From Nonomuraea africana (GTDB lineage: Bacteria; Actinomycetota; Actinomycetes; Streptosporangiales; Streptosporangiaceae), in assembly GCF_014873535.1 (NCBI RefSeq), contig NZ_JADBEF010000001.1, forward strand, positions 5,704,001-5,768,000: a DNA stretch of 64,000 nt, in the 5' to 3' direction. How positions within the stretch are numbered: the stretch's first letter is position 1; each line of letters begins with the position of its first letter. A program made the translations under genes and the position numbers. Of this stretch, positions 6,603 to 61,455 are shown in pieces. Under the pieces are notes generated by a model. That model had not been told where the DNA came from. It did not search any database and was given only the letters and a program-made list of their open reading frames with translations.

Positions 6603-6610
6603 GGCGACTC

Positions 6611-6994: not shown

Positions 6995-7006
6995 ATCCGC
7001 ACCTTA

Positions 7007-7024: not shown

Positions 7025-7033
7025 AAGAAACCC

Positions 7034-7498: not shown

Positions 7499-7599
7499 TT
7501 CGGTCTCCCTCAAGTCGGCCTTGCCGGTACCTCTATCCGGGCCGGCGCGTTTCACGCCCTTGGCCGTTTCGTGGTGGGCCGGCGGGTAGGGCACCAGGC

Positions 7600-7965: not shown

Positions 7966-7971
7966 GACCAC

Positions 7972-8658: not shown

Positions 8659-8835
8659 GGTTCCAAGCTCGCGGAACGCGGCTTTTCGGAGTATCGGAGA
8701 TCGGCCCCACGAAGCCCCTGAACCTACCCCTACGACCTTGGTAGGAATCTCCCTGGCCTGTCCCCGATGACCTGGGGAAAGACCGACCCTGGTAGGGCAG
8801 GCCCCCTCAGGGTTCGGGCAGCCAGGGGTAAGGAT

Positions 8836-8866
8836 TTGACTTCGAGCGCACTCCAGGGGCGAGGCT
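8836..8866 (+). promoter_or_regulatory. MerR-type promoter with 19-bp spacer
   Basis: TTGACT (8836-8841) and GAGGCT (8861-8866) are separated by exactly 19 bases. That over-long spacing is typical of promoters activated by MerR-family regulators. The spacer holds an imperfect dyad (CTTCGAG/CTCCAGG). It precedes the small ORF and aldo/keto reductase, but no MerR gene is adjacent. Confidence 0.5.
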
Positions 8867-8872
8867 GGGGGC

Positions 8873-8959
8873 ATGACGGTGGCCGCCAGGAGCGCCAAGC
8901 TCCCCCAGGACCTCGAGGTCCTGGACTACAAGATCAACCTTTACGAGGAGATGTCATGA
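8873..8959 (+). CDS. 28-residue ORF, possible MerR regulator remnant
   Basis: An ATG seven bases after the putative -10 box opens a 28-codon frame whose end includes [13 protein letters not shown]. That segment resembles the C-terminal helix of MerR-family proteins. Its stop overlaps the aldo/keto reductase start as ATGA, so the two are coupled. It may be a deletion remnant of a MerR gene or a functional leader ORF; neither is shown. Confidence 0.35.
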
Positions 8960-9891: not shown

Positions 9892-9946
9892 TGTCCATCT
9901 AGCGGGTGATTCGCCGCCGGCCGACGACGTTCTACAGTCGGGGTCC

Positions 9947-11062: not shown

Positions 11063-12185
11063 TCAGCGTCGTGGCCACCACCAGCGCGGCCACGATCACC
11101 GCGATCAGCGGGATCGCCGAGGGCGCCAGCGCGCTCAGCAGCACCAGGACCGCGGCGATCAGGAAGGCGGCGGTGTCGGCCGGGCCGTAGCGGTGGGGGC
11201 GGATGTGCAGCGCCCAGACGACCAGCAGGAAGAGCGCGACCGGGATCGCGATGGCCAGCCCCGCCTGTGACCTGGTCAGCACGCTGTCGCCGGTCACGAA
11301 GGCGAGCACGACCTCGAAGCCCGCGCTGAGGCCGCCCACCGCCGCGAAGATCAGGTAGTGGCCGTAGCCCCAGGGGATGGCATGCCTGTTGGAGCGCAGG
11401 ATCGCGGGGGTGTCGGGGGCAAAGTAGATCCACCACAACGCGAAGGCGATCACCAGCGCGCCGATGGACAACGCGACCAGGGTGGGCGTCGGCCCCTCAG
11501 CGGCGACCGCGTCGCGCAGCGAGAGGGTGGCCGCCAGGACGTTCTCGCCCATCATGATGATCGTGAACAGGCCGTAGCGCTCGGCGATGTGGTGCGGGTG
11601 CCAGTGGGTACGGGTGCCCCACTCCGCCCACACCGGCACGGCCAGCTCGATCGCCGCGCCCACGGCGTACGCGACGATCACCGTGGTGCCCGACGTCACG
11701 AACAGCACCAGCCAGTAGACCTGCGCCGCGCAGATCCCGATCGCGTAGCGCAGCGCCACGCGCCTGCCCTCGGGGTCGCTCGCGGCGGCGCGCAGCCACT
11801 GGGAGGCCATGGCCAACCGCATGATCAGATACCCGAGCCAGAAGATCCGGTAGTCGTGGTGCTCGAACGCCCTGGGGATCCCCGACGCCAGCACGAGGAC
11901 GCCCGACATCTGCACCAGCGTGATGGTGCGGTAGACCCAGTCGTCGGTGTCGTAGGCGGAGGCGAACCAGGTGAAGTTCATCCACGCCCACCAGATGGCG
12001 AAGAACGCGGTCAGGTAGCCGGTCAGCGCCTCGCCCAGGTGCCCCGCCGACAGCGCGTGAGCGAGTTGGGTGCCCGCGAAGGAGACGGCGACGACGAAGA
12101 ACAGGTCGAAGAACAGCTCCAGCGGCGTCGCGACGCGATGCGGCTCATCGGTCGCTCGGGCCCGCATCGTGCGCAACTGCGTCAT
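11034..12185 (-). CDS. Low temperature requirement protein A (LtrA)
   Basis: A 383-residue polytopic membrane protein. It opens with the LtrA hallmark TPLELFFDLFFVVAVS and contains the WWAWMNFTWFASAYDTDDW segment and the HHIAERYGLFTIIMMGE motif typical of the family. About ten membrane helices are visible. Function is poorly defined; Listeria ltrA mutants fail to grow in the cold. The start is the ATG at 12185, 17 bases after the stop of the sensor gene upstream, so the two may be co-transcribed. Confidence 0.92.
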   Translation of the reverse strand: MTQLRTMRARATDEPHRVATPLELFFDLFFVVAVSFAGTQLAHALSAGHLGEALTGYLTAFFAIWWAWMNFTWFASAYDTDDWVYRTITLVQMSGVLVLASGIPRAFEHHDYRIFWLGYLIMRLAMASQWLRAAASDPEGRRVALRYAIGICAAQVYWLVLFVTSGTTVIVAYAVGAAIELAVPVWAEWGTRTHWHPHHIAERYGLFTIIMMGENVLAATLSLRDAVAAEGPTPTLVALSIGALVIAFALWWIYFAPDTPAILRSNRHAIPWGYGHYLIFAAVGGLSAGFEVVLAFVTGDSVLTRSQAGLAIAIPVALFLLVVWALHIRPHRYGPADTAAFLIAAVLVLLSALAPSAIPLIAVIVAALVVATTLIRREASPAR

Positions 12186-12202
12186 GCGGAGGTGATACCA
12201 GG

Positions 12203-13117
12203 TCACCGGGGCGGGTCGAAGTAGGCGCGCACCACGGTCGAGCCTTCGCTGGTATGGATCCGCACCAGGTCGCTGAGCAGGTTGACGATCAGCAGCCCGC
12301 GCGAGCCCGCCGTACGGGGATCGACGGGGGAGCGGCCCACCAGCGGGTCGGTGATGTGCCCCGTGTCGCTGACCTCGCAGACCAGGCGCCCTTCCTCGTG
12401 CCAGAGCCGCAGCGTGCCGGCACCCCCGCCGTGGTCGAGGCTGTTGGCGCCCAGTTCGGAGACGGTCAGCTGGACGTCGTCGAGGCGGGTGCCGGTCAGG
12501 CCCGCGGCCAGCGCCCACTCGTTGGCCAGGTGGCGCACCTCGGCGAGGTTGCGGTGGTCGAACAGGAGCGAGACCGCGGTCCTCGGCTCCGCCAGCGGCT
12601 GGTTGTAGCCGTCGATGATCAGCGAGGGGGCGTAGACAGGGCTGCGGCGCTCCCCCGAGGAGTCCTGGATGATCGGGTGGGTGAGCGCCGCGTCGTCGAG
12701 CACGAAGGGTTCGAGACGTTTGACGTCGTAGGGACACAGGATCGTGACCCGCCGTCCGGTGAAGGCCAGGTTGATCAGCGCCTCGTGCTGGGCGCAGGCC
12801 GGGTACTCGGTCTCGCTGCGCCCCTCCCAGATGGGCTCGCCGATGATGCGCACGTGCTGGTCGGGGAAGCGGTCGGCGAAGTCGCGCAGCACGCCGGGGA
12901 TGATCCGGCCGGGGTTGCGGCCGACGACGGTCATGTCGAGCAATCGCACCCGCGCCGCATGGTCGCCCAGCTCACGCCTGATCAGGTCGAGATTGGGCGC
13001 GGGGACGGACACGGCCACCGGCTCCCCTGCCTCGAGTCCGCCACGGATGAAGGGAACGGTGCCCGACAGATACTCCGCGTCGTTCTCGTAGAAGAGCGCC
13101 GGATGCACGAACGCCAT
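12203..13117 (-). CDS. MEDS-domain sensor with anti-sigma-type HATPase domain
   Basis: A 304-residue soluble protein. The first roughly 180 residues form a MEDS (DcmR-like sensory) domain beginning FVHPALFYENDAEYLSG. The C-terminal 120 residues form an RsbW/SpoIIAB-like HATPase, with the N box LTVSELGANSLDHGGGAG and the G box GSRGLLIVNLL. No phospho-acceptor His domain is present, so it likely acts as a Ser kinase or anti-sigma switch rather than a classic two-component kinase. The ATG at 13117 lies 12 bases after a GGAGGT. Confidence 0.88.
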   Translation of the reverse strand: MAFVHPALFYENDAEYLSGTVPFIRGGLEAGEPVAVSVPAPNLDLIRRELGDHAARVRLLDMTVVGRNPGRIIPGVLRDFADRFPDQHVRIIGEPIWEGRSETEYPACAQHEALINLAFTGRRVTILCPYDVKRLEPFVLDDAALTHPIIQDSSGERRSPVYAPSLIIDGYNQPLAEPRTAVSLLFDHRNLAEVRHLANEWALAAGLTGTRLDDVQLTVSELGANSLDHGGGAGTLRLWHEEGRLVCEVSDTGHITDPLVGRSPVDPRTAGSRGLLIVNLLSDLVRIHTSEGSTVVRAYFDPPR

Positions 13118-13304
13118 AAAACTCAGGTTACCTCCACCTGGTGAGTTAGACCTGATCATCGGGTATTACATAGGTACGCCCCACTGGAAGGATTCCGCTA
13201 GGTGAAGAAGCTCCAGCTGGTCCCCCGCCCGCGGCTCCCCCGCCGCCCCCTCCCCCTCGACCTGCGCACTCCCTCAGGCAGGCCCCTCCCTTTCTGACTC
13301 CCCG

Positions 13305-13874
13305 ATGACCGACCCCCACATGCGCGTGTCCGACGCCGACCGTGAACGGGCCGCGCGACAACTGCAGAAGGCCTTCGCCGAGGGCCGGCTCGACGCCGAG
13401 GAACTGGACGAGCGCCTCGGGCTCGCCTTCGGCGCAAAGACCTACGGCGATCTCACCGCGCCGCTGTCCGACCTACCGGCCGCCGGCGCGTTCGTCCCGG
13501 CCGTCTTCTCCGCGCCGCACGCCGAGGCGGTGGTGCTGGAGTCGAAGACGGGCGACGTGACCCGCTCGGGCGACTGGCCGGTGCCCCAGCGACTCAAGGT
13601 CGTCTCCAAGTACGGCAACGCCACCCTCGACCTGTCGGCGGCCGGCGTGCTCCATCCCGTCGTGCACATCGACTTCGACCTGAAGTACGGCTCCGCCGGC
13701 GTCGTCCTGCCCGACGGCGCGACCGCCGACGTGGACGGCTACCAGGCGGGGTGGGGCGGCGCCCCCGAGGTGAGCGTCCCCGCGCGCCCTCGTCCTGGCC
13801 TGCTGCACGTGCGGATCACCGGCCAGATCAAGTACGGCGGGCTGGAGGTCCGCTACCCCCAGGCCATGAGGTAG
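13305..13874 (+). CDS. DUF1707 domain protein with LiaF-like C-terminus
   Basis: A 189-residue cytoplasmic protein. The N-terminal 50 residues are a DUF1707 (SHOCT-like) domain: MRVSDADRERAARQLQKAF followed by DAEELDERLGLA. The remainder is a beta-rich region (SKTGDVTRSGDW, KYGNATLDLSAAG, IKYGGLEVRYP) like the DUF2154/LiaF beta-helix-like C-terminus seen in similar proteins. No membrane helix separates the two. The role is unknown; relatives are implicated in envelope stress. The second ATG at 13320 is an equally good start. Confidence 0.85.
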   Translation: MTDPHMRVSDADRERAARQLQKAFAEGRLDAEELDERLGLAFGAKTYGDLTAPLSDLPAAGAFVPAVFSAPHAEAVVLESKTGDVTRSGDWPVPQRLKVVSKYGNATLDLSAAGVLHPVVHIDFDLKYGSAGVVLPDGATADVDGYQAGWGGAPEVSVPARPRPGLLHVRITGQIKYGGLEVRYPQAMR

Positions 13875-13901
13875 CCGCTCGACCGCCTGGGCACGAAGGG
13901 T

Positions 13902-15254
13902 TCACTCCGGTGGGTTGATCTTGGTGACGTCGATCTCGTCGATCTTCCCGACGATGATCCGGTTGATGAACCACAGCACGACACCGATGCCCACCAGCAC
14001 CGCCGCCCTCAGGTAGACGTCTCCCGTCCTGCCGGTGATCGGCAGCGCCAGGAACAGGCAGACCACCGCGCCCAGCGCCGGCATCCAGGTCGGCGCGACG
14101 AAGTGCTCGTGCCGGACGGGGTCTTTGCGCAGCAGCAGAACGCAGACGTTGACCAGCGCGAAGACCAGCAGCAGCAGGAGCACGGTCGTGTCGGCCAGCG
14201 GTCCCACGTCACCCGTCGACACCAGCACCGCGGCGATGGCCACCGTGAAAACGATCGCCACCCACGGCGTGGCCCTGGTGGGATGGACCGCGCCGAACAC
14301 CGAGGGGATGATGCGCTGGCGCGCCATGCCGTACACCAGCCTGGAGGCCATCAGCATGTTGATCAGGGCGGTGTTGCCGACGGCGAGCAGCGCGATCAGG
14401 GCGAACAGCTTGGGCGGGAAGGCGAACCCGGCCACCTTGACCACTTCGAGGAGCGGGCCCGTCGAGGCGACCAGCGTTCTGGTGTCGACCAGCATGGTGG
14501 CGGTGAAGGCGACCGCCATGTAGATCAGCGCCGCCGCCACCAGCCCGCCGAACAGGGCGGGCGGGAAGTCCTTCTGCGGCTCCCTCGCCTCCTCGGCCAG
14601 GTTGACCGAGTCCTCGAAGCCGAGCAGCGCGTAGAAGGCCAGCGCGGTGCCGCCGAGCACGCCGAGGAAGGCGCCGTGGGCCTGATGGAACTCCAGCGCC
14701 CGCCCCGGCTCGCCCTCGCCGGTGAACAGCGCGTAGACGCCGATCGCGACGATCACCAGGAGACCGAAGGCCTCGATGATCGTCAGGGTCACGTTGACCT
14801 TCACCGACTCGGAGATGCCGGCGAAGTTCACCAGCGTGACCAGGCCGAGGAAGGCGAACGCGCCCACGATCACCGGCACCGTGACGAACTCGGCCAGGTA
14901 TCTGCCGCCGAACGCCCTGGCGGCGGCACTGGCGGAGGTGATGCCGCTCATCATGACCGCGAAGGCCACGATGAAGGTCACGAACGGGATGTGGAAGGCC
15001 TTGTTGGCGTACAGGGCCGCGCCCGCCGCCTGCGGGTACTTGCCGACCAGCTCCGCGTAGGCGGTGGCGGTGAGGGCGGCGAGCACGAACGCGACGAGGA
15101 ACGGCACCCAGAGGGCCCCGCCCACGTTGCCGGCCACCTTCCCGACCAGCGCGTAGATGCCGGCGCCGAGGATGTCCCCAAGGACGAAGAGCAGGAGCAC
15201 CTTGCGGCCGATGACCCGCTTCAACGCGGGCTGATGCCCGTGACCCACAGTCAT
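13902..15254 (-). CDS. APC-family amino acid permease
   Basis: A 450-residue transporter with about 12 membrane helices. The first helix carries LLFVLGDILGAGIYALVGKVAG, the APC signature; helix 2 and its loop include AYAELVGKYPQAAGAALY. FYALLGFEDSVNLAEEAREPQKDFP is typical of the APC branch that includes cationic amino acid transporters. Substrate unknown. The start ATG at 15254 precedes the homologous region, and a longer open frame upstream is spurious. It is divergent from a small lipoprotein gene and unrelated to the first APC permease except by family. Confidence 0.88.
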   Translation of the reverse strand: MTVGHGHQPALKRVIGRKVLLLFVLGDILGAGIYALVGKVAGNVGGALWVPFLVAFVLAALTATAYAELVGKYPQAAGAALYANKAFHIPFVTFIVAFAVMMSGITSASAAARAFGGRYLAEFVTVPVIVGAFAFLGLVTLVNFAGISESVKVNVTLTIIEAFGLLVIVAIGVYALFTGEGEPGRALEFHQAHGAFLGVLGGTALAFYALLGFEDSVNLAEEAREPQKDFPPALFGGLVAAALIYMAVAFTATMLVDTRTLVASTGPLLEVVKVAGFAFPPKLFALIALLAVGNTALINMLMASRLVYGMARQRIIPSVFGAVHPTRATPWVAIVFTVAIAAVLVSTGDVGPLADTTVLLLLLVFALVNVCVLLLRKDPVRHEHFVAPTWMPALGAVVCLFLALPITGRTGDVYLRAAVLVGIGVVLWFINRIIVGKIDEIDVTKINPPE

Positions 15255-46813: not shown

Positions 46814-46920
46814 CCCCTAGTGCAAGATTCAAGTGTTCTGCAAACCTTGCGGTTACCTTGGAGATGCGCCGGGCTTCAAAGACCCGGCTTCGTCATGTGG
46901 AACGCTACAGGAGGATTCCG

Positions 46921-48300
46921 GTGATACCGACGAACGGCCGTCACGCGCAGAGGCGTTCCCCGTGGCCGATCGCTCTGGCAGCCGGAATCGTCGCGGTGGC
47001 GCTAGTCGCCGGCATCATGATCTACGCGGGCAACCGGAACAGCGCCTCCGGCGAGCCCGCCACGATCCCGCCCACGCAGGCCGCCCCCACGCTTAACGCG
47101 CCGCCCCCCACGCAGGACTGGCCGCGCTGGGGCGTGACCCACACGCAGTACAGCGCCGACCAGGACACGCCCGAGGTCCGTGAGGCCGCCGTCGGCATCC
47201 TCGCCCGCGAGCCGATGCTGCAGAACCAGCACATCATGGGCTGGGGCGCGGGCAACCCCGAGCCGAGCCCCGGCAAGTACGACTTCCGCGACCTCGACCG
47301 CCGCATGAAGATGATGTCGGACTCCCGGTCGATCCCCGTCATCACGCTGTGCTGCGCCCCCGACTGGATGAAGGGCGGCACGGCGGGCCGTACCGACTGG
47401 GCGAAGAACCACACCACCGCGCCCAGGCGCGAGCACTTCGACGACTACGCCAAGCTGGCCGCGACCGTCGCGAAGCGCTACCCGACCGTGAAGCACTTCA
47501 TGGTGTGGAACGAGTTCAAGGGCTTCTGGAATCAGGCCACCAACAGGTGGGACGCCGAGGCGTACACCGAGCTGTACAACAAGGTCTACGACGCGCTCAA
47601 GAAGGTGAACCCCGAGATCAAGGTCGGCGGGCCTTACGTGCCGATCGACCACCACGATCCCACGATCGGCACCTCGGAGGTCAGCGGGCCGTGGGGCGTG
47701 GTCGACCAGCGGGTGCTCGACGCGATCGAGTACTGGCTCGAGAACAAGAAGGGCGCCGAGTTCGTCGTCATCGACGGCGCCACGATGACCAAGGAGCAGC
47801 AGCAGCCCCTGCCGGACGAGTTCGCCGCGACGGCGAAGTTCTCGGCGATCACGACGTGGCTGCGCCAGAAGAGCGGCGACCTGCCGGTGTGGTGGGCCGA
47901 GTACTACGTCGAGCCGGAGAACACCGGCTGGAGCGAGGAGAAGGTGGCCGCGGTCCAGGCCACCGCGATGATGGAGTTCGCCAAGAGCGGCGTCACCACC
48001 GCCCTGTACTGGAACCCGCAGAAGAAGCCGGCCGGTGAGTGCCACGGCTGCCTCTGGGTGCCCGGGCGCGGCGCCGAGATGCCGATGGCGGGGCTGCTCA
48101 GCGGGTTCGTCAAGTGGTTCCCGACCAACGCGAGGCTGGAGCAGGTGGTCACGAGCGACCCGAAGGTGCGCGTGCTGGCCCAGCCGAACCAGATGGTGAT
48201 GGTCAACACCACCGACGCCGACCTGACCGCGACCGTCGACGGCAAGGCGTTCACGTTCAAGCCTTACGAGATCAAGTGGAGCCAGCGGGCCCGCGCCTAG
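46921..48300 (+). CDS. Membrane-anchored glycoside hydrolase (GH39/GH5-like barrel)
   Basis: A 459-residue protein with an N-terminal anchor (about residues 14-35, WPIALAAGIVAVALVAGIMIYAG) and a (beta/alpha)8-like domain. Catalytic-type features are VWNEFKGFWNQ (acid/base Glu of clan GH-A) and WWAEYYVEPE for a likely nucleophile. The C-terminal end has a small beta domain. The GTG at 46921 is chosen because AGGAGG (46909-46914) stands six bases before it; the frame is open upstream. It may degrade or remodel the exopolysaccharide made nearby. Confidence 0.8.
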   Translation: MIPTNGRHAQRRSPWPIALAAGIVAVALVAGIMIYAGNRNSASGEPATIPPTQAAPTLNAPPPTQDWPRWGVTHTQYSADQDTPEVREAAVGILAREPMLQNQHIMGWGAGNPEPSPGKYDFRDLDRRMKMMSDSRSIPVITLCCAPDWMKGGTAGRTDWAKNHTTAPRREHFDDYAKLAATVAKRYPTVKHFMVWNEFKGFWNQATNRWDAEAYTELYNKVYDALKKVNPEIKVGGPYVPIDHHDPTIGTSEVSGPWGVVDQRVLDAIEYWLENKKGAEFVVIDGATMTKEQQQPLPDEFAATAKFSAITTWLRQKSGDLPVWWAEYYVEPENTGWSEEKVAAVQATAMMEFAKSGVTTALYWNPQKKPAGECHGCLWVPGRGAEMPMAGLLSGFVKWFPTNARLEQVVTSDPKVRVLAQPNQMVMVNTTDADLTATVDGKAFTFKPYEIKWSQRARA

Positions 48301-49753: not shown

Positions 49754-50389
49754 ATGCTCTCCACCACACCCCGCACGACGCTCGGCCGCGAGAAGCACCG
49801 CGGCAGCACCGACAGGAACGATCTCTACGAGGTGCTCGACACCGGGCTCATCTGCCATCTGGGCGTGGTGGTGAACGGTCACCCGATGGTCGTGCCCACG
49901 GGCTACGGCCGCATCGGCGACACCCTCTACCTGCACGGCTCCACCGGCGCCCGGTCGCTGCGCGCCGGACAGGGCAGCCAGGTCTGCGTGACCGTCACCC
50001 ATCTCGACGGTCTCGTGCTGGCGCGCTCGGTCTTCAACCACTCCGTCAACTTCCGCTCGGCCATCATCTACGGCGAGGCCAGGCTGGTGACCGACGAGCA
50101 GGAGCGCCTGGACGGGCTGCGCGCGCTGACCGAACAGCTGGCCCCCGGTCAGTGGGACTACGCGAGGCGGCCCACCCGCAAGGAACTGGCGGCCACAGCG
50201 GTTCTGGCCCTGTCGCTGGAGGAGGCGTCGGTGAAGCTGCGCGCGGGCGCCCCCGAGGACGAGAAGGAGGACTACGCGCTGCCCATCTGGGCCGGGGTGC
50301 TGCCGATGGTCTCGTCGTGGGGCGCCCCGGTGCCCGATCCGGCCCTTCCACCGGGCATCGCGACACCTGCCCATATTCGGGACCGTTGA
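49754..50389 (+). CDS. Pyridoxamine 5'-phosphate oxidase-related FMN-binding protein
   Basis: A 211-residue split-barrel flavoprotein. GLICHLGVVVNGHPMVVPTGYGRIGDTLYLHGSTGAR is the typical FMN-binding start, followed by VCVTVTHLDGLVLARSVFNHSVNFRSAIIYG. It is divergent from the MocR regulator, which is the usual control arrangement for pyridoxine or flavin split-barrel genes. Substrate unknown. Confidence 0.9.
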   Translation: MLSTTPRTTLGREKHRGSTDRNDLYEVLDTGLICHLGVVVNGHPMVVPTGYGRIGDTLYLHGSTGARSLRAGQGSQVCVTVTHLDGLVLARSVFNHSVNFRSAIIYGEARLVTDEQERLDGLRALTEQLAPGQWDYARRPTRKELAATAVLALSLEEASVKLRAGAPEDEKEDYALPIWAGVLPMVSSWGAPVPDPALPPGIATPAHIRDR

Positions 50390-50454: not shown

Positions 50455-52749
50455 ATGGCATGGAGCGTCCCCGGCTACACCGAGGTGCGCCAGCTCGGCT
50501 CGGGCGGCAGCGGCAGGGTCGTCCTCGCCGTGCACGACGACACGGGCGCCGACGTCGCGATCAAGTACCTCTCCGAGCGCGTACGGCACGAGCCGGGGGC
50601 GCTGGCCGCCTTCCGGGCGGAGGCGGAGCTCCTGACCACGCTGGTGGACCCGCATATCGCCAGGATGTGGGAGTACGTCCAGGAGCCCGAGGGCGCCGCG
50701 ATCGTCATGGAGCTGGTCAACGGCGTCTCCCTGCGGGCGCTGCTGCGCGAGAACGGCACGACGGGCCCCGAGGCGGCGCTCGTCGTGCTCAAGGGGTCGC
50801 TGCTCGGCCTGGAGCGGGCGCACATCGCGCATCTGGTGCACCGCGACTACAAGCCGGAGAACGTGATCGTCAGGGACGACGGGATCAGCAAGCTCGTCGA
50901 CTTCGGCATCGCCGTCCGGCACGGCACGGCCACGCGGGCCACGGGCACCCCGCCCTACATGGCGCCCGAGCTGTGGTCGGGCCGGCCCGCCTCCCCCGCG
51001 ACCGACGTCTACGCGGCCACGGTCGTCTTCTTCGAGTGCCTGACGGGACACCGGCCCTACCGCTCGACCGAGTCGCACGTGCTCGGCTACCAGCACCTGT
51101 ACGCGCCCGTCCCGATCCATGACGCCCCGGAGGAGATGCGGGAGCTGATCGGGCGCGGGCTGGCCAAGGATCCCGCCGAGCGTCCGCCGAGCGCGGCGGC
51201 GTTCGTGGCCGAGGTGGAGGCGGCCGCGGTGGCGGCCTACGGGGAGGAGTGGGAGGAGCGGGGCAGGCGGCGGCTGGCCGCGCTCGTCGGCCTGCTGGCG
51301 TTCCTGCTGCCGCTGCCCGAGCCGCCGCCGCCCGCCGCGGGCTCCACGTTCTTCCGCACGGTCTTCGACGCCGCGCGGCGCAACGGCAGGCGGCTGCTGA
51401 TGGGCACCACGGCGACGGTCGCCGCGGCGGGGGCCGCGGTGTACGTGCTGGCCAGTGCCGAGCCGCCGCCCGCGACGACGGTCGACGCGGTGGCGGCGGC
51501 GCCGTCCCTCACGCCCGAGCTGCCCAGCCCCGCCTCGGTGCCCTCCGAGAGCGCCGAGGCTGGCGGCCGAGGCGGCACGGAACCCGGCGGAGAGCCCGGC
51601 GGGGCGACGACCTTACCGCCAGGGCCCGCGACCACCCCGACCGTCCCGCCCCCTACCGCGAAGCCGCCCACCACCGCGCCTCCCACAACCGCGCCTCCCA
51701 CCACGAAGCCTCCCACCACGAAGCCTCCGACGGTCACGCCGACGCCGTCGCCCAGGCCGCCGACCGCGGTGTCGGCGCTGGACGTCGGCGGGCTCACCGT
51801 CGGCGCCGACGCCGTGGCCGCCGCGACCGTCTCCCTCCGCACCACCGGCACGGACGCCGTCACGGTGACGGCCCGCTTCGCGGTCGACGGCGAGGTCGTG
51901 CGCACCGCCACCAGCCGGGTGCGCGGCGCCGTGTCCTACACCCGCTCCTTCAGCCACGGCCTCGGCGAGCGGGCGTGCGGCAGGACCGTCACGCTCACGG
52001 TGTCCACCTCGCCGGCCGCCCCCGGCGGCGCGAAGAGCGTCAGCGCGGCCGTCCCCGCGTGCCCCACGCGGGTGACGGGCCTGCGCGTCTCGCTCGACCT
52101 GGCCAAGGCGCCAGGCAGGGCCGTGACGGCACGGGTCTTCGTGGCGACCAGCGGCACGGGCCAGGTCGGGATGCGGGCCTTCGTCGCGCTCGACGGGGAG
52201 CGGGTGGCCACCACGTCCGCCTCGCTGTCCGGCCGTGACAGCTACACCAGGGACGTCACCCACACCTTCGCCCAGCGTCCGTGCGGGAGGACGGTGACGG
52301 TGACCGTCAGGGCCGGCGGCAGGCAGGCCACCGCCAGGACCGGGGTGCCGTGCGAGGCCGCGGTGCGGCGGGTCTCCATCGCCCGCGCCTCGCTCGACGC
52401 CCGCGGTCGGGCGACCGCCATCGTGACCGTCGCGACCACGACCACCCAGCCGGTACGGCTCAGCGTGACCTACACCCTCGCCGGACGCGTCCAGCACACC
52501 GAGTCGCTCGACCTGTCGGGACAGACCGCCTACACCAGGACGGTCGCCTTCACGTTCGCCAAGGCGCCGTGCGGATCGGCCTGGGGCGTGACGGTCGCGA
52601 CCGCCCCCTCGGCGGCCAACGGGAGCGACTCCGGCGGCGGCACGACCCCCGCCTGCCGGCCGCAGGTCGAGACCGAGAGTCCAAAACCGGACGATTCACA
52701 GCAAGATACCGAAAATATCAACCCTGATCTTGGTCTGGACCGTTACTAA
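50455..52749 (+). CDS. Membrane Ser/Thr protein kinase with triple repeat extracellular domain
   Basis: A 764-residue Hanks-type kinase. The kinase domain (about residues 8-270) has the glycine loop LGSGGSGRVV, ATP lysine K37, catalytic HRDYKPEN (D131) and DFG (D149). A membrane helix lies at about 310-332. The outside part begins with a Pro/Thr linker of tandem repeats, then three units of about 95 residues, each with a Cys-Gly and a later Cys (CGRTVT, then VPAC or VPC). These look like disulfide-linked Ig-like domains and probably sense a wall or secreted ligand. Confidence 0.9.
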   Translation: MAWSVPGYTEVRQLGSGGSGRVVLAVHDDTGADVAIKYLSERVRHEPGALAAFRAEAELLTTLVDPHIARMWEYVQEPEGAAIVMELVNGVSLRALLRENGTTGPEAALVVLKGSLLGLERAHIAHLVHRDYKPENVIVRDDGISKLVDFGIAVRHGTATRATGTPPYMAPELWSGRPASPATDVYAATVVFFECLTGHRPYRSTESHVLGYQHLYAPVPIHDAPEEMRELIGRGLAKDPAERPPSAAAFVAEVEAAAVAAYGEEWEERGRRRLAALVGLLAFLLPLPEPPPPAAGSTFFRTVFDAARRNGRRLLMGTTATVAAAGAAVYVLASAEPPPATTVDAVAAAPSLTPELPSPASVPSESAEAGGRGGTEPGGEPGGATTLPPGPATTPTVPPPTAKPPTTAPPTTAPPTTKPPTTKPPTVTPTPSPRPPTAVSALDVGGLTVGADAVAAATVSLRTTGTDAVTVTARFAVDGEVVRTATSRVRGAVSYTRSFSHGLGERACGRTVTLTVSTSPAAPGGAKSVSAAVPACPTRVTGLRVSLDLAKAPGRAVTARVFVATSGTGQVGMRAFVALDGERVATTSASLSGRDSYTRDVTHTFAQRPCGRTVTVTVRAGGRQATARTGVPCEAAVRRVSIARASLDARGRATAIVTVATTTTQPVRLSVTYTLAGRVQHTESLDLSGQTAYTRTVAFTFAKAPCGSAWGVTVATAPSAANGSDSGGGTTPACRPQVETESPKPDDSQQDTENINPDLGLDRY
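51652..51735 (+). repeat. Pro-Thr tandem repeat in kinase linker
   Basis: A roughly 15-base unit (CCTCCCACCACGAAG and variants) repeats about five times and encodes PPTTA/PPTTK blocks linking the kinase membrane helix to its extracellular domains. Confidence 0.65.
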
Positions 52750-52838
52750 TGAGAAACGTGCGTAATGGACCGCATCCGAACATATGACCTTGTCCCACCG
52801 CCTTTCGGCGGTTCCCACCGCACGTTTCTCATTAGTAA
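52743..52838. repeat. 96-bp element with perfect 20-bp inverted ends between two kinase genes
   Basis: Left arm 52743-52762 and right arm 52819-52838 are perfect 20-bp inverted copies (TTACTAATGAGAAACGTGCG). They enclose 56 bases with an inner CCGCC/GGCGG hairpin. The arms are A/T-rich in a GC-rich region. The left arm includes the kinase TAA stop. It may be a MITE, a strong RNA hairpin or a terminator. Confidence 0.7.
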
Positions 52839-52890
52839 GCTACGCTCCGTCTGATGTGGGTGGGGGCCCAGATAGATCCGAGGTGGTCTG

Positions 52891-54552
52891 ATGGACCGGT
52901 GGGGGGTCCCCGGTTATACCGAGATACGTGAGCTGGGCACCGGAGCCTCAGGGCGGGTGGTCCTGGCTCGACGCGATCACGACGGCGTCGAGGTCGCGAT
53001 CAAGTACCTGTCCGACCGGCTGCGCGACGACGTCGGCTTCGTGGCCAGGTTCCGGCACGAGGCGCGGCTGCTGGGCAGCATGCGCAGCCCGCACAACGTC
53101 CGCCTGATCGGGTACGTCGAGGACGGCCAGGGCACGGCGATCATCATGGAGCTGATCAGCGGCGTCACGCTGCGCGCCCTGATCGACTCCGAGGGGCCGA
53201 CGGGTCCCGAGGCCGCGCTGGCCGTGCTCAAGGGCTCCCTGCAGGGGCTGGCGGCGGCGCACGCGATCGGCGTGGTCCACCGCGACTTCAAGCCCGAGAA
53301 CGTGATGGTCCAGGGCGACGGCAGCAGCAAGCTGGTCGACTTCGGCATCGCGGTGCGGCAGGGCGAGGGCGTCAACGCCGCGGGCACTCCCGCCTACATG
53401 GCCCCTGAGCAGTGGTCGGGCGGCCCCGCCTCGCCCGCGGGCGACGTCTACGCCGCGACGATCGTGTTCTTCGAGTGCCTCACCGGCATGCGGCCCTTCC
53501 GCGCCACCACGGTCCCCGCGCTGGCCAGGCAGCACCACGCCACGCCGCCGCCGATCGAGGAGGTGCCGGAGGCGTTGCAGCCGCTCGTCGAGCGGGGCCT
53601 GTCCAAGCATCCGGTGGAGCGACCGCCCTCGGCCGAGGCCTTCCTCTCCGAGCTGGAGAGCGTGGCGGCGCGGGCCTATGGTCTCGACTGGGAGGAGCGG
53701 GGCAGGCGGCGCCTGGCGCGGCTGGCCGGGCTGCTGCTCGTGCTCTTCCCCGGGGCGCCGGAGGAGCCGGCCGACACCGGCACGTCGCTGGCCGAGACGG
53801 AGTTCGCCGAGCCGCGGAGCCTGCTGGCCAGGCTGGGCATGAAGACGCTGGTCGGCATCGGGCTGGTGGCGGTGATCGGCACGGTCACCACCGTGCTGCT
53901 CACCTCGGGCGACGACGATCCCGCGCTGCGGGCGCAGACCTCGCCCTTGACCCCGAGCGCCCCGACGTCGCTGATCGAGGCGCCCTCCCCGTCGGAGTCC
54001 GTCTCGGCGGAGCCGACGCAGGAGGAGCCGTCCGCCGAGACGACGCCCACGGCCACCACCACGGCCACCACCACGGCGCCGACACCGTCGGTGGCCGCCG
54101 TGTCGCCGACCACCGCCACGCCCACTCCCAGCCCGTCGAAGCGGCCGATCAAGGCATCGCCCCGGCCGCCGCGTCCGAAGGCGACCAGGACGCCGTCGCC
54201 GACGCCCACGCCTGACGAGTCGTTGCGCGGCAGGGCGGACAACGATCCGCCGGCCTCGCCGTCCCGCACGCCGTCGGAGCCCGCGACGACCTCGGCCGCG
54301 CCCCCTCCTCCCCCGCCGTCGACGGCGTCGAGCAGCGCCAGCGCGAGTCCGACCTCCGACACCGAGAGTCCCGACACCGAGACGCCACGGGAGACCGACA
54401 CCGAAGGAGCGAGGGTCACCGAGAGCCCGGCTGACGTGCTCGCGCAGGCGCCCGCCGCGCTGCTCGCGCTCGGGCTCGTGACGTCGGGCGCGGTTCCGGT
54501 CACACTGGCGGTGAAACGCCGCGTCGCGGGGCGGCACAGGAGAAAGAGCTGA
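52891..54552 (+). CDS. Membrane Ser/Thr protein kinase with Ser/Thr/Pro-rich extracellular tail
   Basis: A 553-residue Hanks-type kinase paralogous to the preceding one. It has the glycine loop LGTGASGRVV, VAIKYLSD, catalytic HRDFKPEN (D132) and DFG, then YMAPEQW, which is the APE motif. A membrane helix lies at about residues 310-335. The extracellular part is low-complexity Ser/Thr/Pro and ends with a second hydrophobic segment followed by a basic tail (RRVAGRHRRK). It starts at an ATG behind a GAGGTGG site. Confidence 0.9.
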   Translation: MDRWGVPGYTEIRELGTGASGRVVLARRDHDGVEVAIKYLSDRLRDDVGFVARFRHEARLLGSMRSPHNVRLIGYVEDGQGTAIIMELISGVTLRALIDSEGPTGPEAALAVLKGSLQGLAAAHAIGVVHRDFKPENVMVQGDGSSKLVDFGIAVRQGEGVNAAGTPAYMAPEQWSGGPASPAGDVYAATIVFFECLTGMRPFRATTVPALARQHHATPPPIEEVPEALQPLVERGLSKHPVERPPSAEAFLSELESVAARAYGLDWEERGRRRLARLAGLLLVLFPGAPEEPADTGTSLAETEFAEPRSLLARLGMKTLVGIGLVAVIGTVTTVLLTSGDDDPALRAQTSPLTPSAPTSLIEAPSPSESVSAEPTQEEPSAETTPTATTTATTTAPTPSVAAVSPTTATPTPSPSKRPIKASPRPPRPKATRTPSPTPTPDESLRGRADNDPPASPSRTPSEPATTSAAPPPPPPSTASSSASASPTSDTESPDTETPRETDTEGARVTESPADVLAQAPAALLALGLVTSGAVPVTLAVKRRVAGRHRRKS

Positions 54553-54576
54553 CGGGGGCGAGCGACCGGGGGACGC

Positions 54577-55914
54577 ATGAGCATGATCGCCGGTTTCCTG
54601 CTCTCCGAGCGGGCCAGGGCGAGCGAGCTGGGCACGTGGGTGGAGGCGACGGGCCCAGACGGCCGTGGGGCGGGCGCCCTGCGGTTCGATCCCGACCTGC
54701 TGCTCACGCCGGGCGCGCGCGACCGCCTCGTGCAGGCCGTGGTCGTCGACCGCAGGCTGGCCGAAGGCGGCATGGCGGGGTTGGTGCCGATCGCCGACCT
54801 GGTGATGGCGGGGGAAGAGGTGTGGCTGCTGGCCGCCCACGCGGTCTCGCCCACGCTGTCGGAGCTGCTGAGCGCGCCCGCGATGGATCCGGCCAGCGCG
54901 GCGGCGGTGCTGGTGGAGAGCGCCCAGACGCTCGCCGCCCTGCACGCGGCGGGCGTGGCGCACGGCTCCTTCCACCCCGGCACCGTGCTGATCGCCGGGG
55001 ACGGGGCCACGCTGCTGGGCGAGCGCGGGCTGGCTGACGCGATCAGGGGATTACCCCCGGCGCCTGAACGCGACGTCGCCGCCTGGGCCGCGCTGGCCAG
55101 GGGGCTGGCCGCCACCTGGGCCTCGGGCGCGCAGGGCGCGGCCGAGCTGTTCGAGCGCGCGGCGGCCACCGCCACCACCCACGGCCTTCCCGCGGCCAGG
55201 GACGGACTGCTGGCGGGGCGTGACGCGCTGCCGGGCGGGCTCATCAGCCGCGATCTGCTCGCCGAGAGCGCCCGCCGGTGGTCGTCGCCCGCCTCTCCCG
55301 GGAGCGCCGGCCCGCCGGACAGGGACGAGGGCGACATCGTCACGATGCTGAGAGCCCCCGAACCCACGCGGGAGCCCGTGCACGTCGGTCCCGGCGTCAC
55401 CCCGGCCGCCACCCGCGGCCAGACCACCGCGGAGAAGATCTGGCGGGAGGGCGCCGGGCCCGCGGCCCCCTCCGCGTACGGCATGCGCGCGAAGCGGGCC
55501 GCCAGGGCCAGGCGCCGCAGGACCATCGTCTCCGCCGCGGTGTTCGCGCTGGTCGTCGCGGGCGCGGTGCTGGCGTGGTTCTCGGTGCGCTCCACGACCG
55601 GCCTGGTGGTGCGGGAGGCAACGGTGAGCGCGCCCAAGACGCTGGGCTGCCGCAAGACGGCGACGATCACCGGCAGCCTGGTCACGAACGGCGAGGCGGG
55701 CAGGGTCACCTTCCAATGGCTGCGCAGTGACAGGAAGGAGCCCATCGAGCAGACCGAGACCGTGCCGTCGGGCACGACCACCCACACCGTGCAGCTGAGA
55801 TGGACGGTGAAGGGGGAGGCGACGGCCAAGCTCACGGCGCGCCTGCGGATCGTGTCGCCCGTCCCCGAGGGGGAGAAGATCGAGGATAAAGCGACATTCA
55901 CCTATAAGTGCTGA
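54577..55914 (+). CDS. Pseudokinase-like membrane protein
   Basis: A 445-residue protein. Residues about 10-230 resemble a degenerate protein-kinase fold: HGSFHPGTVLI stands where HRD-x4-N should be, LLGERGLAD stands where DFG should be, and the lysine and glycine loop are not identifiable. A membrane helix (about residues 312-335) follows a basic stretch, then an extracellular beta domain with two Cys residues (LGCRKTATI and FTYKC). It probably binds ligand or partner kinases rather than phosphorylating. It follows the kinase gene by 24 bases. Confidence 0.8.
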   Translation: MSMIAGFLLSERARASELGTWVEATGPDGRGAGALRFDPDLLLTPGARDRLVQAVVVDRRLAEGGMAGLVPIADLVMAGEEVWLLAAHAVSPTLSELLSAPAMDPASAAAVLVESAQTLAALHAAGVAHGSFHPGTVLIAGDGATLLGERGLADAIRGLPPAPERDVAAWAALARGLAATWASGAQGAAELFERAAATATTHGLPAARDGLLAGRDALPGGLISRDLLAESARRWSSPASPGSAGPPDRDEGDIVTMLRAPEPTREPVHVGPGVTPAATRGQTTAEKIWREGAGPAAPSAYGMRAKRAARARRRRTIVSAAVFALVVAGAVLAWFSVRSTTGLVVREATVSAPKTLGCRKTATITGSLVTNGEAGRVTFQWLRSDRKEPIEQTETVPSGTTTHTVQLRWTVKGEATAKLTARLRIVSPVPEGEKIEDKATFTYKC

Positions 55915-55953
55915 TCTACCCACAACAAAGCGGTTGTTATTAGTCTGACGGCC

Positions 55954-57198
55954 ATGACCACGCAGACCCCCGCAGGCTGGTACCCCGACCCCTACGGCTC
56001 GCCGCAGCTGCGGTGGTGGGACGGGGGCCAGTGGACCGACGCCACACACCCGATGGAGCAGCAGCAGTCAGGCGCCCAGCAGGCCGCCGCACCGCGGCAG
56101 GGACCTCCATCGGCAGCGTCTCCCCAGGCGGCGTCTCCGCAGGCGGCGTCTCCCCAGGCGGGGCCTCCACCGGCGGGGTCCCCGCACCAGCCGCACGGGC
56201 CCGTGGTGGGGAGCACGCCGTACCACGGGGCGAACGCCGCTCCCGCGCGGCCGTCCCACGAACAGGGACAGCCGCACTCCACGCAGGGCGGCGGGTGGGC
56301 GCAGGGCCAGGCCCCGCAGAGCGGCGGGTGGCAGCAGCCGGCTCCCACCCAGCAGTACGGCGGGCAGCCGTGGGGCGGCGGAACCGCGCAGATGCCCAGG
56401 CCCGACTTCGGGCCGCCGCCCAAGTCAGGCGGCGGCGCGCTGCCGTGGGTGCTCGGCGGGATCGGCTCGGTCCTCGTGCTCGCGCTGGTCGTGGCCGCGG
56501 CCGTCTTCATGATCAACAGGTCTGGCGGGACGACGGCCCAGCCGACTCCCGAGCCGGTTCCGAGCACCAGTCCGAGCGAGCCCACCCCCTCGCCGAGCGA
56601 GTCCCCGAGCGAGTCGGCCACGCCGACGCCGCAGGACCCCGGCGCCGAGCTGCCCGCGGTCTCGGGTGGGCGCATCACCGACCCCAAGACCGGCCTGTCC
56701 TACGCGGCCCCCGGCGACCCGTGGAAGGTGCCCCCGTCTGCCGAGATCAACGCCCCCGACCCCAACGTCCAGCAGTGGTCGGCGGGGATGCAGGCCGTCT
56801 CGCACGAGAAGTACGACGGCGAGAGCGACTGGAACGGCAGCATCTACTCGGGCGAGCTCAACCCGATCTACCCCTACGAGGGCACGCAGGGCCTGCGCGG
56901 CACCGTCGGCACCGTCTTCATCGACTTCGCCCGCTTCTACCCCATCAAGCACGAGCGGAAGATCCTCCAGGACAAGGCCATCACGGTGGACGGGCACAAG
57001 GGCTGGCTGCTGGAGTACGAGATGGACTTCACCGCCGAGTCGGAGAAGAACGGCTACCAGTGGAAGAAGGAGCGGGGCGCGATCGTGGTCGTCGACAGGG
57101 GCGAGGGCAAGCGGCCCGCGCTGCTGTACGCTTCGGTCCCCGACAACCTGGATACCGGTCTCGTCACTCAGGTGGTGAAGTCTCTCAAGCTGTCCTGA
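55954..57198 (+). CDS. DUF2510 membrane protein with Pro/Gln-rich linker
   Basis: A 414-residue protein. It starts with a DUF2510 domain (GWYPDPYGSPQLRWWDGGQWTDATH), a short beta unit found in many actinobacterial membrane proteins. A repetitive Pro/Gln/Ala/Gly linker with about four SPQAA repeats follows, then one membrane helix (about residues 170-190), a Ser/Thr/Pro stalk and a beta-rich extracellular domain ending KSLKLS. Function unknown. It is the last gene of the kinase group. Confidence 0.82.
   Translation: MTTQTPAGWYPDPYGSPQLRWWDGGQWTDATHPMEQQQSGAQQAAAPRQGPPSAASPQAASPQAASPQAGPPPAGSPHQPHGPVVGSTPYHGANAAPARPSHEQGQPHSTQGGGWAQGQAPQSGGWQQPAPTQQYGGQPWGGGTAQMPRPDFGPPPKSGGGALPWVLGGIGSVLVLALVVAAAVFMINRSGGTTAQPTPEPVPSTSPSEPTPSPSESPSESATPTPQDPGAELPAVSGGRITDPKTGLSYAAPGDPWKVPPSAEINAPDPNVQQWSAGMQAVSHEKYDGESDWNGSIYSGELNPIYPYEGTQGLRGTVGTVFIDFARFYPIKHERKILQDKAITVDGHKGWLLEYEMDFTAESEKNGYQWKKERGAIVVVDRGEGKRPALLYASVPDNLDTGLVTQVVKSLKLS
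56107..56165 (+). repeat. 15-bp tandem repeat in DUF2510 gene
   Basis: Repeats of about 15 bases (GCGTCTCCCCAGGCG and variants) encode successive SPQAA units in the linker of the DUF2510 protein. Confidence 0.65.
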
Positions 57199-57270: not shown

Positions 57271-57867
57271 ATGAGTGACTTGCTGGTCTGGATCGACTGC
57301 GAGATGACCGGGCTCGACCTGGGGCGCGACGCGCTCATCGAGGTCGCCTGTGTCGTCACCGACAGCGAGCTGCGGCAGCTGGACGAGGGCGTCGACGTGG
57401 TCATCAAGCCCCCGTCCGAGGCGTTGGAGCAGATGTCGGAGGTGGTGCGCGAGATGCACACGGCTTCGGGGCTGCTGCCCGAGCTGGGCGAGGGGGTGAC
57501 GCTCGCGGAGGCCGAGTCGCTCGTGCTCGACTACATCCGCGGCCACATCCCCGAGCCGAAGCGGGCGCCGCTGTGCGGCAACTCCATCGGCACCGACCGC
57601 ACGTTCATCTCCCGCGACATGCCGGCCGTGGACGCCTACCTGCACTACCGGATGATCGACGTCTCCTCTATCAAGGAACTCGTGCGCCGCTGGTACCCGC
57701 GCGTCTACTTCGCCGCGCCCGAGAAGCAGGGCGGGCACCGGGCTCTGGCGGACATCACCGAGAGCGTCCGCGAGCTGCGTTACTACCGCGCCACCGTGTT
57801 CGTGCCGCAGCCGGGACCCGACTCGGCCACCGCCAGGACACTCGCGGACGGTGTGTCGTATATCTGA
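57271..57867 (+). CDS. orn: Oligoribonuclease (3'-5' exoribonuclease)
   Basis: A 198-residue DEDDh exonuclease that degrades oligoribonucleotides and pGpG. Catalytic residues are D9 and E11 (WIDCEMTG), D109 (GTDRTF), H156 and D161 (HRALADI), matching E. coli Orn. It is the normal partner of tRNA-His in actinobacteria. The ATG at 57271 follows GAGGAG. Confidence 0.96.
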
Positions 57868-60472: not shown

Positions 60473-61455
60473 CTAGACGAGTAAGTCCTAAGTCGTTTCG
60501 GCTGCGGGAACGACGAAGGGTGTTGATGATCCGTTTGTGACGACAGACCTCAACACCCTTCTCACCGCACTGTACGTGAAGATCGACGACTGGCTCGGCA
60601 AAGCGCCCCGCCTCGGCCGCCCACCCAAGCTGACCGACGCCGAACTGCTGACCTTAGCGGTCGCCCAAGTCCTGCTCGGGATCGGCTCCGAGGCCCGCTG
60701 GCTGCGGTTCGTCCCCCGGCACCTGCCCGGCGCCTTCCCCTACCTGCCCGGCCAATCCGGCTACAACAAACGGCTCCGCGCGGCCCTGCCCCTGCTCCAG
60801 CGCGCCATCCGGGCCCTGGCCCTCGACACCGATCTGTGGGCCGACCCGGTCTGGGTGGTCGACTCCACCCCGGTCGAATGCGGCCGCTCCCGCCCCACCA
60901 CGCAGCGCTCGGACCTGGCCGGCTGGGCCGGCTACGGCTACTGCCGCTCCCACTCCCGCTGGTTTTGGGGTCTGCGGCTGCACCTGGTCTGCACCCCGGC
61001 CGGACTGCCGATCAGCTGGGCCCTGGCCACCCCGAAGATCGACGAACGGCAGGTGCTGATGGCCGTCTTGGACCACGACCCGCATCTGCTCGCCACCCGA
61101 CCCGGGCTGCTGATCATCGCCGACAAGGGCTACGTCTCGGCCGAACTGGACCACTACCTGGCCGAACGGGGCGTGCGGCTGCTGCGGCCGTCCTACCGCA
61201 ACCGCACACCCCGCCCGGGCGAGCAGCTCCTCAAACCCATCCGCCAGCTCATCGAATCGGTCAACGACACCCTCAAAGGCCAACTCGACCTGGAACTCCA
61301 CGGCGGACGCAGCCCTGAGGGGGTCGGCGCGCGCATCGCCCAGCGCATCTTGGCGTTGACCGCCGCTATCTGGCACAACCGCGCTACCGGCCAGCCCGTC
61401 ACCCGGTCACTGATCGCCTATGACCACTAACCCGACTTAGGACTTACTCGTCTAG
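60473..61455. mobile_element. IS982-family insertion sequence
   Basis: A complete 983-bp element. Perfect 23-bp terminal inverted repeats lie at 60473-60495 and 61433-61455 (CTAGACGAGTAAGTCCTAAGTCG). It encodes one intact transposase (60537-61430). No obvious target duplication was seen in the flanks. The intact ends suggest recent activity within an otherwise decayed island. Confidence 0.88.
60537..61430 (+). CDS. IS982-family transposase
   Basis: A 297-residue DDE transposase. It begins DLNTLLTALYVKIDDWLG and has DDE residues near D109 (VVDSTPVECG), D196 (IIADKGYVS) and E240 (LIESVNDTLKGQL). IS982 enzymes move by cut-and-paste or copy-out routes. It lies within perfect terminal repeats. 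Confidence 0.93.
   Translation: MTTDLNTLLTALYVKIDDWLGKAPRLGRPPKLTDAELLTLAVAQVLLGIGSEARWLRFVPRHLPGAFPYLPGQSGYNKRLRAALPLLQRAIRALALDTDLWADPVWVVDSTPVECGRSRPTTQRSDLAGWAGYGYCRSHSRWFWGLRLHLVCTPAGLPISWALATPKIDERQVLMAVLDHDPHLLATRPGLLIIADKGYVSAELDHYLAERGVRLLRPSYRNRTPRPGEQLLKPIRQLIESVNDTLKGQLDLELHGGRSPEGVGARIAQRILALTAAIWHNRATGQPVTRSLIAYDH

What the first reader, a model, noticed from the sequence alone, without database searches (positions are those of the whole stretch)
50455..57198. Kinase-kinase-pseudokinase-DUF2510 membrane signalling locus
Four consecutive same-strand genes encode two active-type membrane kinases, a kinase-like protein lacking catalytic residues, and a DUF2510 anchor protein. All have extracytoplasmic C-terminal regions. 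The set looks like a multi-component receptor system that may integrate wall signals and pass them by kinase-pseudokinase pairing. I know no named system with this order.
Basis: partly seen in the sequence, partly recalled or inferred. Interest (0 to 1): 0.7.

Follow-up and report, generated by a model that had tools for sequence, protein, structure and literature searches.

The report
Kinase paired with dead-kinase membrane partner
A soil actinobacterium carries a conserved pair of neighbouring genes for an active membrane kinase and a membrane partner whose own kinase domain is dead; in related bacteria the same partner has a live kinase domain or none at all, which makes this a natural test case for what dead kinases do in bacteria.

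Summary
The four genes are real and correctly placed. KinA and KinB carry intact kinase motifs. The third protein (PsK) is a true pseudokinase: kinase fold and no catalytic Asp in any of 120 aligned rows. The locus is conserved: in 80 named Streptosporangiaceae loci the order kinase-PsK-DUF2510-orn holds wherever the contig reaches. Two points change the reading. First, the unit is a kinase-partner pair, not four genes: PsK's tail-TM-outside part (GPGV motif) lies behind a KinA/KinB-family kinase in 130 of 139 matches. Its N-terminus is a pseudokinase (here), a live kinase or absent, as on three Streptomycetaceae plasmids. Second, DUF2510-orn occurs without the kinases, KinA is often missing, and one genome keeps KinA-KinB-DUF2510-orn without PsK. 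KinB mostly has a second TM, so not all C-termini are outside. Best reading: PsK is a non-catalytic co-receptor and probable substrate of KinB, working like MviN with PknB but not shown to belong to that family. Ligand and output are unknown.

The parts
50455..52749 (+). KinA: active-type Ser/Thr kinase (HRDYKPENV), TM near residue 318, long Pro/Thr stalk, outside repeats with paired Cys (three by my reading); optional member
   Evidence: same clade as KinB on the tree; absent from 22 of 71 named loci with enough upstream sequence (counted)
52891..54552 (+). KinB: active-type Ser/Thr kinase (HRDFKPENV); two hydrophobic stretches with a Pro/Ser/Thr-rich outside loop between them; constant neighbour of PsK
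53845..53901 (+). KinB first TM, about residues 319-337
   Evidence: hydropathy on orthologues; window position read from the sequence
54451..54513 (+). KinB second TM, about residues 521-541, followed by a basic tail
   Evidence: 65 of 76 orthologues have two or more TM; window position read from the sequence
54577..55914 (+). PsK: pseudokinase - tail - TM - outside beta-sandwich; the partner protein
54577..55287 (+). PsK pseudokinase domain, residues 1-237 (HGSFHPGTV for HRDxKPxNV, ERG for DFG, short activation segment)
   Evidence: AlphaFold2 pLDDT mostly above 90 here; kinase fold Z 20.4; residue counts
55342..55344 (+). PsK Thr256 in the I-V-T-L-L tail motif (IVTML in the window), candidate phosphorylation site
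   Evidence: Thr in 112 of 120 rows in an otherwise disordered, variable tail; that it is phosphorylated is inference
55384..55398 (+). PsK FGPGV juxtamembrane motif (VGPGV in the window), residues 270-274
   Evidence: F109, G116, P111, G119, V106 of 120 rows; also in partners without a kinase domain
55525..55587 (+). PsK TM helix, residues 317-337
   Evidence: AlphaFold2 helix 317-337
55609..55908 (+). PsK outside domain, residues 345-444, seven-strand beta-sandwich between Cys358 and Cys445 ('Ig-like' is my label)
   Evidence: Cys358 and Cys445 invariant in 31 sequences
55954..57198 (+). DUF2510 - Pro-rich linker - TM (169-188) - Mog1/PsbP-fold outside domain (238-414); co-located, membership uncertain
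   Evidence: linked to orn without kinases elsewhere
57271..57867 (+). oligoribonuclease-type gene (orn, name from gene order and family, recalled), next gene downstream, not part of the module
   Evidence: RNase_T domain, 93.8 bits; conserved neighbour
49754..50389 (+). Pyridox_ox_2 protein, upstream neighbour, not part of the module
   Evidence: syntenic

Best explanation
The working unit is a two-gene membrane signalling pair. KinB (with its paralogue KinA where present) is the catalytic receptor kinase. PsK is its constant partner: outside it carries a beta-sandwich with two conserved Cys; inside, a disordered tail with a conserved Thr (IVTLL) and a GPGV motif; at its N-terminus, a kinase fold that lacks the residues for catalysis. 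I propose that the outside domains bring KinA/KinB and PsK together when a ligand binds, that PsK's dead kinase domain docks on KinB's kinase domain and sets its activity, and that KinB phosphorylates the PsK tail so that it recruits a downstream protein. Shown: catalytic-residue loss, fold, gene order, pairing, exchange of the N-terminal domain, conserved tail motifs. Inferred: physical contact, direction of control, phosphorylation at Thr256, ligand, output. The DUF2510 protein and orn are neighbours whose linkage does not depend on the kinases; their part in the system is open.
For: Catalytic loss: 0 of 120 aligned rows keep Asp at the HRD position (A77, S39, E2, T1, P1), 4 of 120 keep Asn at position 136, 2 of 120 have Lys at position 36 (named and unnamed rows overlap, about 5-7 rows are misaligned in places). 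Fold. Pairing: 130 of 139 outside-domain matches in 138 loci have a KinA/KinB-family kinase (50% identity or more) upstream on the same strand within 4.5 kb; 7 of the 9 exceptions have under 1.5 kb of sequence upstream; the other two are L053's second copy, whose own upstream kinase is 45% identical, and L321, where the partner is fused to a kinase and a KinB-family kinase lies downstream. Pairing kinases tested lie in one clade of 34 of 66 rows, support 100/100, branch 1.06. KinB stop to extrapolated PsK codon 1 is 50 nt or less in 66 of 76 named loci. Bare pairs with unrelated flanks on three Streptomycetaceae plasmids, genes overlapping in two. Exchange of the N-terminal domain: live kinase in L058, L316, L317, L319; none in L054-L057 and L060, L320 and L322-L327; pseudokinase here and in L202 of another family, the six sampled forming one clade 100/100. 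Co-duplication in L053.
Against: No contact, phosphorylation or ligand has been measured. G012 (L162) keeps KinA-KinB-DUF2510-orn with no PsK there and no match elsewhere at the cut-offs, so the kinases can persist without it. Partners without any kinase domain are common, so the dead domain is not needed for the basic function of the pair. Two other own-genome kinases of the same clade (L221, L238) show no GPGV partner among their neighbours. The whole block, GntR, PNPOx and orn included, is syntenic, so gene order within the family says little by itself; the weight rests on the pairs outside this locus. The tail Thr was not tested against any kinase or FHA motif.
Confidence: 0.55

Rival explanations
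1. PsK works as a phosphorylated scaffold only: KinB phosphorylates the tail, which recruits a phospho-binding (for example FHA) protein, as with PknB, MviN and FhaA; the dead kinase domain is a docking surface and has no effect on KinB activity.
For: Same layout as the C-terminal part of MviN: pseudokinase, tail, TM, outside domain (read from L281-L283; PknB-tail-FhaA account in PMC12599244 section 8). Conserved Thr256 in a disordered tail.
Against: No FHA family search was run, so a partner is neither found nor excluded. PsK does not group with MviN pseudokinases (long branches).
Confidence: 0.25
2. The four genes form one envelope-signalling system in which the DUF2510 protein is a substrate or sensor and the kinases act on it.
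For: Tight same-strand spacing of 39 and 72 nt and constant order in 80 named loci as far as contigs reach; G012 keeps KinA-KinB-DUF2510-orn without PsK.
Against: DUF2510-orn with no kinase gene directly upstream in 7 of 12 family genomes examined; kinase-partner pairs without DUF2510 beside them in L054-L057 and L060 and on three named plasmids.
Confidence: 0.12
3. PsK's kinase-like domain is a relic without function, kept because the protein's tail and outside domain are needed.
For: Partners without the domain exist in several genera and in Streptomycetaceae.
Against: 60 of 150 family genomes keep the domain (71 less 11 whose match misses it), with invariant H129, G130, E149, G151, D166 and W170 in 31 sequences of 41-59% identity to the window protein; an unused domain should decay.
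Confidence: 0.08

Closest known systems
MviN (MurJ) pseudokinase of Mycobacterium tuberculosis with PknB and FhaA (ActPs3 family; PMC12599244)
   Same: Dead kinase domain with all three motifs lost and a short activation segment, then a tail, a TM and an outside domain; an active receptor-type kinase as the likely partner
   Different: PsK is not fused to MurJ; it sits directly behind a kinase gene; it does not group with MviN pseudokinases; no FhaA-type partner identified
PknB/Stk1-type PASTA kinases
   Same: KinA and KinB match NF033483 best in NCBIfam (175 and 192.6 bits); cytoplasmic kinase, TM, outside part
   Different: Below the family cut-off of 450 bits; no PASTA match in Pfam
ActPs1 and ActPs2 pseudokinase families (PMC12599244)
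   Same: Mainly actinobacterial, motifs lost; TM after the domain in ActPs2
   Different: ActPs2 has Asn at the HRD Asp and, in about 90%, a 250-residue activation-loop insertion; PsK has Ala/Ser and a short loop. ActPs1 often carries a PQQ domain, not matched here
Mog1/PsbP-fold mycobacterial proteins Apa, LpqN, MTC28 (for the DUF2510 protein)
   Same: Fold of the outside domain: Apa Z 12.9 (rmsd 3.0, 142-146 aligned), LpqN Z 10.1 (rmsd 3.5, 139 aligned)
   Different: Sequence identity 9-17% in these rows; a DUF2510 head and TM are not part of those proteins (recalled)

Membership tests
Catalytic Hanks-type Ser/Thr kinase (KinA, KinB) | Kinase domain with beta3 Lys, HRD Asp and DFG Asp | tested here: met
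   K38, H130, R131, D132, D150, F151, G152 invariant in the nine sequences of A5. Activity itself not tested
Pseudokinase (PsK) | Kinase fold with catalytic residues missing, conserved as missing | tested here: met
   Fold. Residues: (0 of 120 rows with the HRD Asp)
Pseudokinase (PsK) | No phosphotransfer or ATP binding in vitro | not testable with these tools
   Needs purified protein
ActPs3 (MviN-type) pseudokinases | Actinobacterial, all three motifs lost, activation loop shortened, TM after the domain | tested here: met
   definition from PMC12599244 section 8. Short activation segment read from the A1 consensus
ActPs3 (MviN-type) pseudokinases | Common ancestry with MviN pseudokinases, closer than to live kinases | tested here: inconclusive
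   hhalign PsK-MviN 92.8%, E 3.9e-7 over 149 columns; PsK-KinA/B 95.7%, E 9.1e-9 over 62 columns; the tree puts MviN apart from PsK but on long branches
ActPs3 (MviN-type) pseudokinases | Phosphorylation of the tail by a PknB-type kinase and FHA recruitment | not testable with these tools
   Only a conserved Thr256 in the tail seen
PASTA kinase (PknB/Stk1) | PASTA repeats outside; NF033483 score of 450 bits or more | tested here: not met
   175 and 192.6 bits; no PASTA match
Four-gene signalling system as proposed | All four genes kept together | tested here: not met
   KinA absent from 22 of 71 named loci with enough upstream sequence (counted); DUF2510-orn with no kinase directly upstream in 7 of 12
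Anti-phage kinase PD-T4-6 (PADLOC) | Kinase of a defence system | tested here: inconclusive
   KinA and KinB match many PD-T4-6 models, as Hanks kinases in general may; no defence genes were looked for nearby

The most novel reading that the evidence does not exclude
A bacterial two-protein receptor kinase in which the co-receptor slot has been filled in evolution by a live kinase domain, a dead kinase domain or none, so that a pseudokinase acts as an allosteric co-receptor in the manner of HER3 beside HER2, with a shared outside domain and GPGV tail in all three states.
Probability: 0.3. Interest if true: 0.75.

Novelty: new variant of a known kind. Interest (0 to 1): 0.55.

Why it matters
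Bacterial pseudokinases are described as largely unexplored experimentally (abstract of PMC12599244). Here one sits beside its presumed kinase in the same gene string across a family, and relatives offer natural versions of the same partner with a live kinase, a dead kinase or no kinase domain. That makes the question 'what does the dead domain add?' directly testable by swapping natural variants, in a genome with 65 Pkinase matches where partners are otherwise hard to assign.

Tried and rejected
Defence role: PADLOC matches are to generic kinase models; not pursued. PsK as a MurJ offshoot: the three MurJ-family matches of the genome were looked at; the L208 and L210 ORFs called are 535 and 553 aa and the L209 frame ends in membrane segments, so I saw no pseudokinase on them. 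PsK as a degenerate copy of KinA/KinB: the tree gives PsK its own clade at the end of a 3.96 branch, so its parent kinase is not resolved. The live kinase domains in the slot belong to another kinase group (with own-genome L220) than PsK, so I dropped the simple story that PsK decayed from that kinase. SCO2400-family match of PsK (21.6 bits, cut-off 55) rejected as tail/TM similarity; GltJ match of the DUF2510 protein (16.9 bits, cut-off 450) rejected as low-complexity. Literature: searches showed no paper on this locus or pair in the held library (DUF2510: 0 papers); only PMC12599244 was opened (outline with abstract, passages, sections 6, 7, 8, 12); other papers were seen as search listings only.

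My ORF caller (a GC-position heuristic) misses genes: it missed the kinases of L200-L203 and L207, which tblastn then found. Absences at orn loci may also be misses. In one search one row (PsK_L053b) was cut wrongly by my pattern and entered 436 aa long; the tree is used only for its weak deep forks. In one search four rows of the earlier tree were left out (L059_3385, two own_L212 rows, L053_10347).
Full report
WHAT IS THERE. The window lies in a 9.69 Mb genome. The nearest named relative by PsK is Nonomuraea dietziae, 87% identity, so the host is very probably a Nonomuraea. Four + strand ORFs stand at the stated place: KinA 50455-52749, KinB 52891-54552, PsK 54577-55914, DUF2510 protein 55954-57198, with gaps of 141, 24 and 39 nt, then orn 72 nt further on. 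KinA and KinB are ordinary live-type kinases by motif and by Pfam. PsK has no Pfam kinase match and no row in the genome-wide Pkinase list of 65 places, yet single-sequence and profile searches find kinases for residues 63-170, and its AlphaFold2 model (mean pLDDT 84.4) is a kinase fold over residues 1-237 (Z 20.4, rmsd 3.3, 220 aligned to 5j5t).

PsK IS DEAD, AND THIS IS CONSERVED. In an alignment of 120 rows (window, 80 named and 39 unnamed sequences; named and unnamed can be the same strain; about 5-7 rows are misaligned in places) no row has Asp at the HRD position (A77, S39, E2, T1, P1), Thr replaces Asn in 104, and the DFG place reads E-R-G (112, 116, 116). His129 and Gly130 are invariant in the 31-sequence alignment A1, as are Glu149, Gly151, Asp166 and Trp170: the domain is kept, its catalytic residues are not.

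CONSERVATION. Among 150 genomes of the GTDB family, 71 match PsK at E 1e-10 or better; in 11 of these the match covers only the tail and outside domain, leaving 60 with the pseudokinase domain (my count). A scan of named genomes found 136 relatives and kept 80; the titles are of Nonomuraea, Streptosporangium and other genera that I know as Streptosporangiaceae. In these 80, kinase-PsK-DUF2510-orn holds wherever the contig reaches: the 4 loci without a KinA/KinB-family kinase found have under 1.3 kb upstream (L086, L090, L111, L142) and L098 ends within the DUF2510 gene. KinA is missing from 22 of the 71 named loci with enough upstream sequence (counted). The flanking GntR, PNPOx and orn genes are largely syntenic too, so within the family gene order alone is weak evidence.

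THE REAL UNIT IS A PAIR. The outside half of PsK (tail with GPGV, TM, beta-sandwich ending in Cys) occurs without the pseudokinase domain in small proteins behind a KinA/KinB-like kinase: L054-L057 and L060 in the same GTDB family and nine loci of another family of the class, f18; a tenth f18 locus, L202, has it with a pseudokinase. Over 138 loci, 130 of 139 outside-domain matches have a KinA/KinB-family kinase upstream on the same strand within 4.5 kb; seven of the nine exceptions run out of sequence within 1.5 kb upstream, L053's second copy has a 45% kinase upstream, and L321 is a fusion with a KinB-family kinase downstream. Named records show the bare pair with unrelated flanks on plasmids of Streptomyces sp. 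NBC_00316, Streptomyces clavuligerus and Kitasatospora sp. NBC_00039, annotated 'serine/threonine-protein kinase' and 'hypothetical protein'; the two genes overlap in the first two (three of the six plasmid records with a match were opened for this, and a fourth, Nonomuraea gerenzanensis, holds the whole locus). Their kinases are 59-65% identical to KinA/KinB and carry an outside part with Cys like KinA's repeats. On a tree of 66 kinases, 34 rows including KinA, KinB and all pairing kinases placed form one clade (100/100, branch 1.06); of the own-genome kinases placed (loci of the 30 best of 65 matches), only KinA, KinB and two more fall in it, and those two have no GPGV partner among their neighbours.

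THREE STATES OF THE PARTNER. In L058, L316, L317 and L319 the partner's N-terminus is a live-type kinase (HRDLKP, DFG) behind a KinA/KinB-family kinase. In the window and its relatives, and in L202 of f18, it is the pseudokinase; all six sampled pseudokinases form one clade (100/100). Elsewhere it is absent. The live domains belong to a different kinase group, so this looks like exchange or repeated fusion of kinase-fold domains on one membrane partner, not simple decay. L053 holds kinase-PsK twice in a row before one DUF2510 gene: the pair was doubled as a pair. Which state is ancestral is not resolved: the outside-domain tree has weak deep forks.

WHAT DOES NOT BELONG FOR CERTAIN. At the orn locus of 12 family genomes chosen because they lack full PsK, 1 (L162) has KinA-KinB-DUF2510-orn and no PsK, 7 have a DUF2510 gene upstream of orn with no kinase gene directly upstream (L163, L164, L166, L167, L168, L171, L172), and 4 show neither with my gene caller (L165, L169, L170, L173). 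So DUF2510-orn stands without the kinases, and the kinase module probably entered beside it (inference). The DUF2510 outside domain has the Mog1/PsbP fold (Apa Z 12.9, LpqN Z 10.1). KinB has a second hydrophobic stretch in 65 of 76 orthologues, so its outside part is mostly a loop.

MECHANISM. Most likely: ligand-driven assembly of KinB/KinA with PsK, docking of the dead domain on KinB, phosphorylation of the PsK tail. The tail is predicted disordered, yet Thr256 is kept in 112 of 120 rows and GPGV nearly throughout; many f18 partners have a Thr in a similar setting before GPGV (S-A-T-V-L). The nearest worked-out parallel is MviN-PknB-FhaA (PMC12599244 section 8). PsK meets the descriptive features of that family (ActPs3) but common ancestry was not shown: profile comparison gives E 9.1e-9 to live KinA/KinB and E 3.9e-7 to MviN, and the tree keeps them apart on long branches. 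It may work like MviN; it is not filed as an MviN-type pseudokinase. Contact, phosphorylation, ligand and output are inference.

NOVELTY. Actinobacterial pseudokinases are known as classes; I found no description of this locus or of the kinase-partner pair in the held library. I rate it a new variant of a known kind.

Noticed in passing
L162 (G012), 5233-10807: KinA-KinB-DUF2510-orn locus lacking PsK, with no PsK match elsewhere in that genome at the cut-offs used: a natural absence to exploit.
   Followed up: partly
L053 (G025), 6103-14432: Kinase-PsK-kinase-PsK-DUF2510: tandem doubling of the pair; orn not found beside it.
   Followed up: partly
L335, 3215-4261 (Kitasatospora sp. NBC_00039 plasmid): Partner protein with a long N-terminal run of repeated T-V-R-L-like motifs, perhaps an array of phosphorylation or phospho-binding sites.
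   Followed up: no
window 60537-61430 (+): 297-aa ORF that reads like an insertion-sequence transposase downstream of the locus (my reading, no family search run).
   Followed up: no
window 46858-48300 (+): Glyco_hydro_39-like protein with an N-terminal hydrophobic stretch near the locus (37.3 bits, cut-off 26).
   Followed up: no
L332, record NZ_LT559118.1: 11.85 Mb 'plasmid I' of Nonomuraea gerenzanensis in PLSDB holds the whole locus with orn and only 10 annotated features; it looks like a chromosome labelled as a plasmid.
   Followed up: no
L284 (5434-7071) and L285 (5634-7478), own genome: Two further KinA/KinB-clade kinases in the same genome without a GPGV partner gene beside them.
   Followed up: partly
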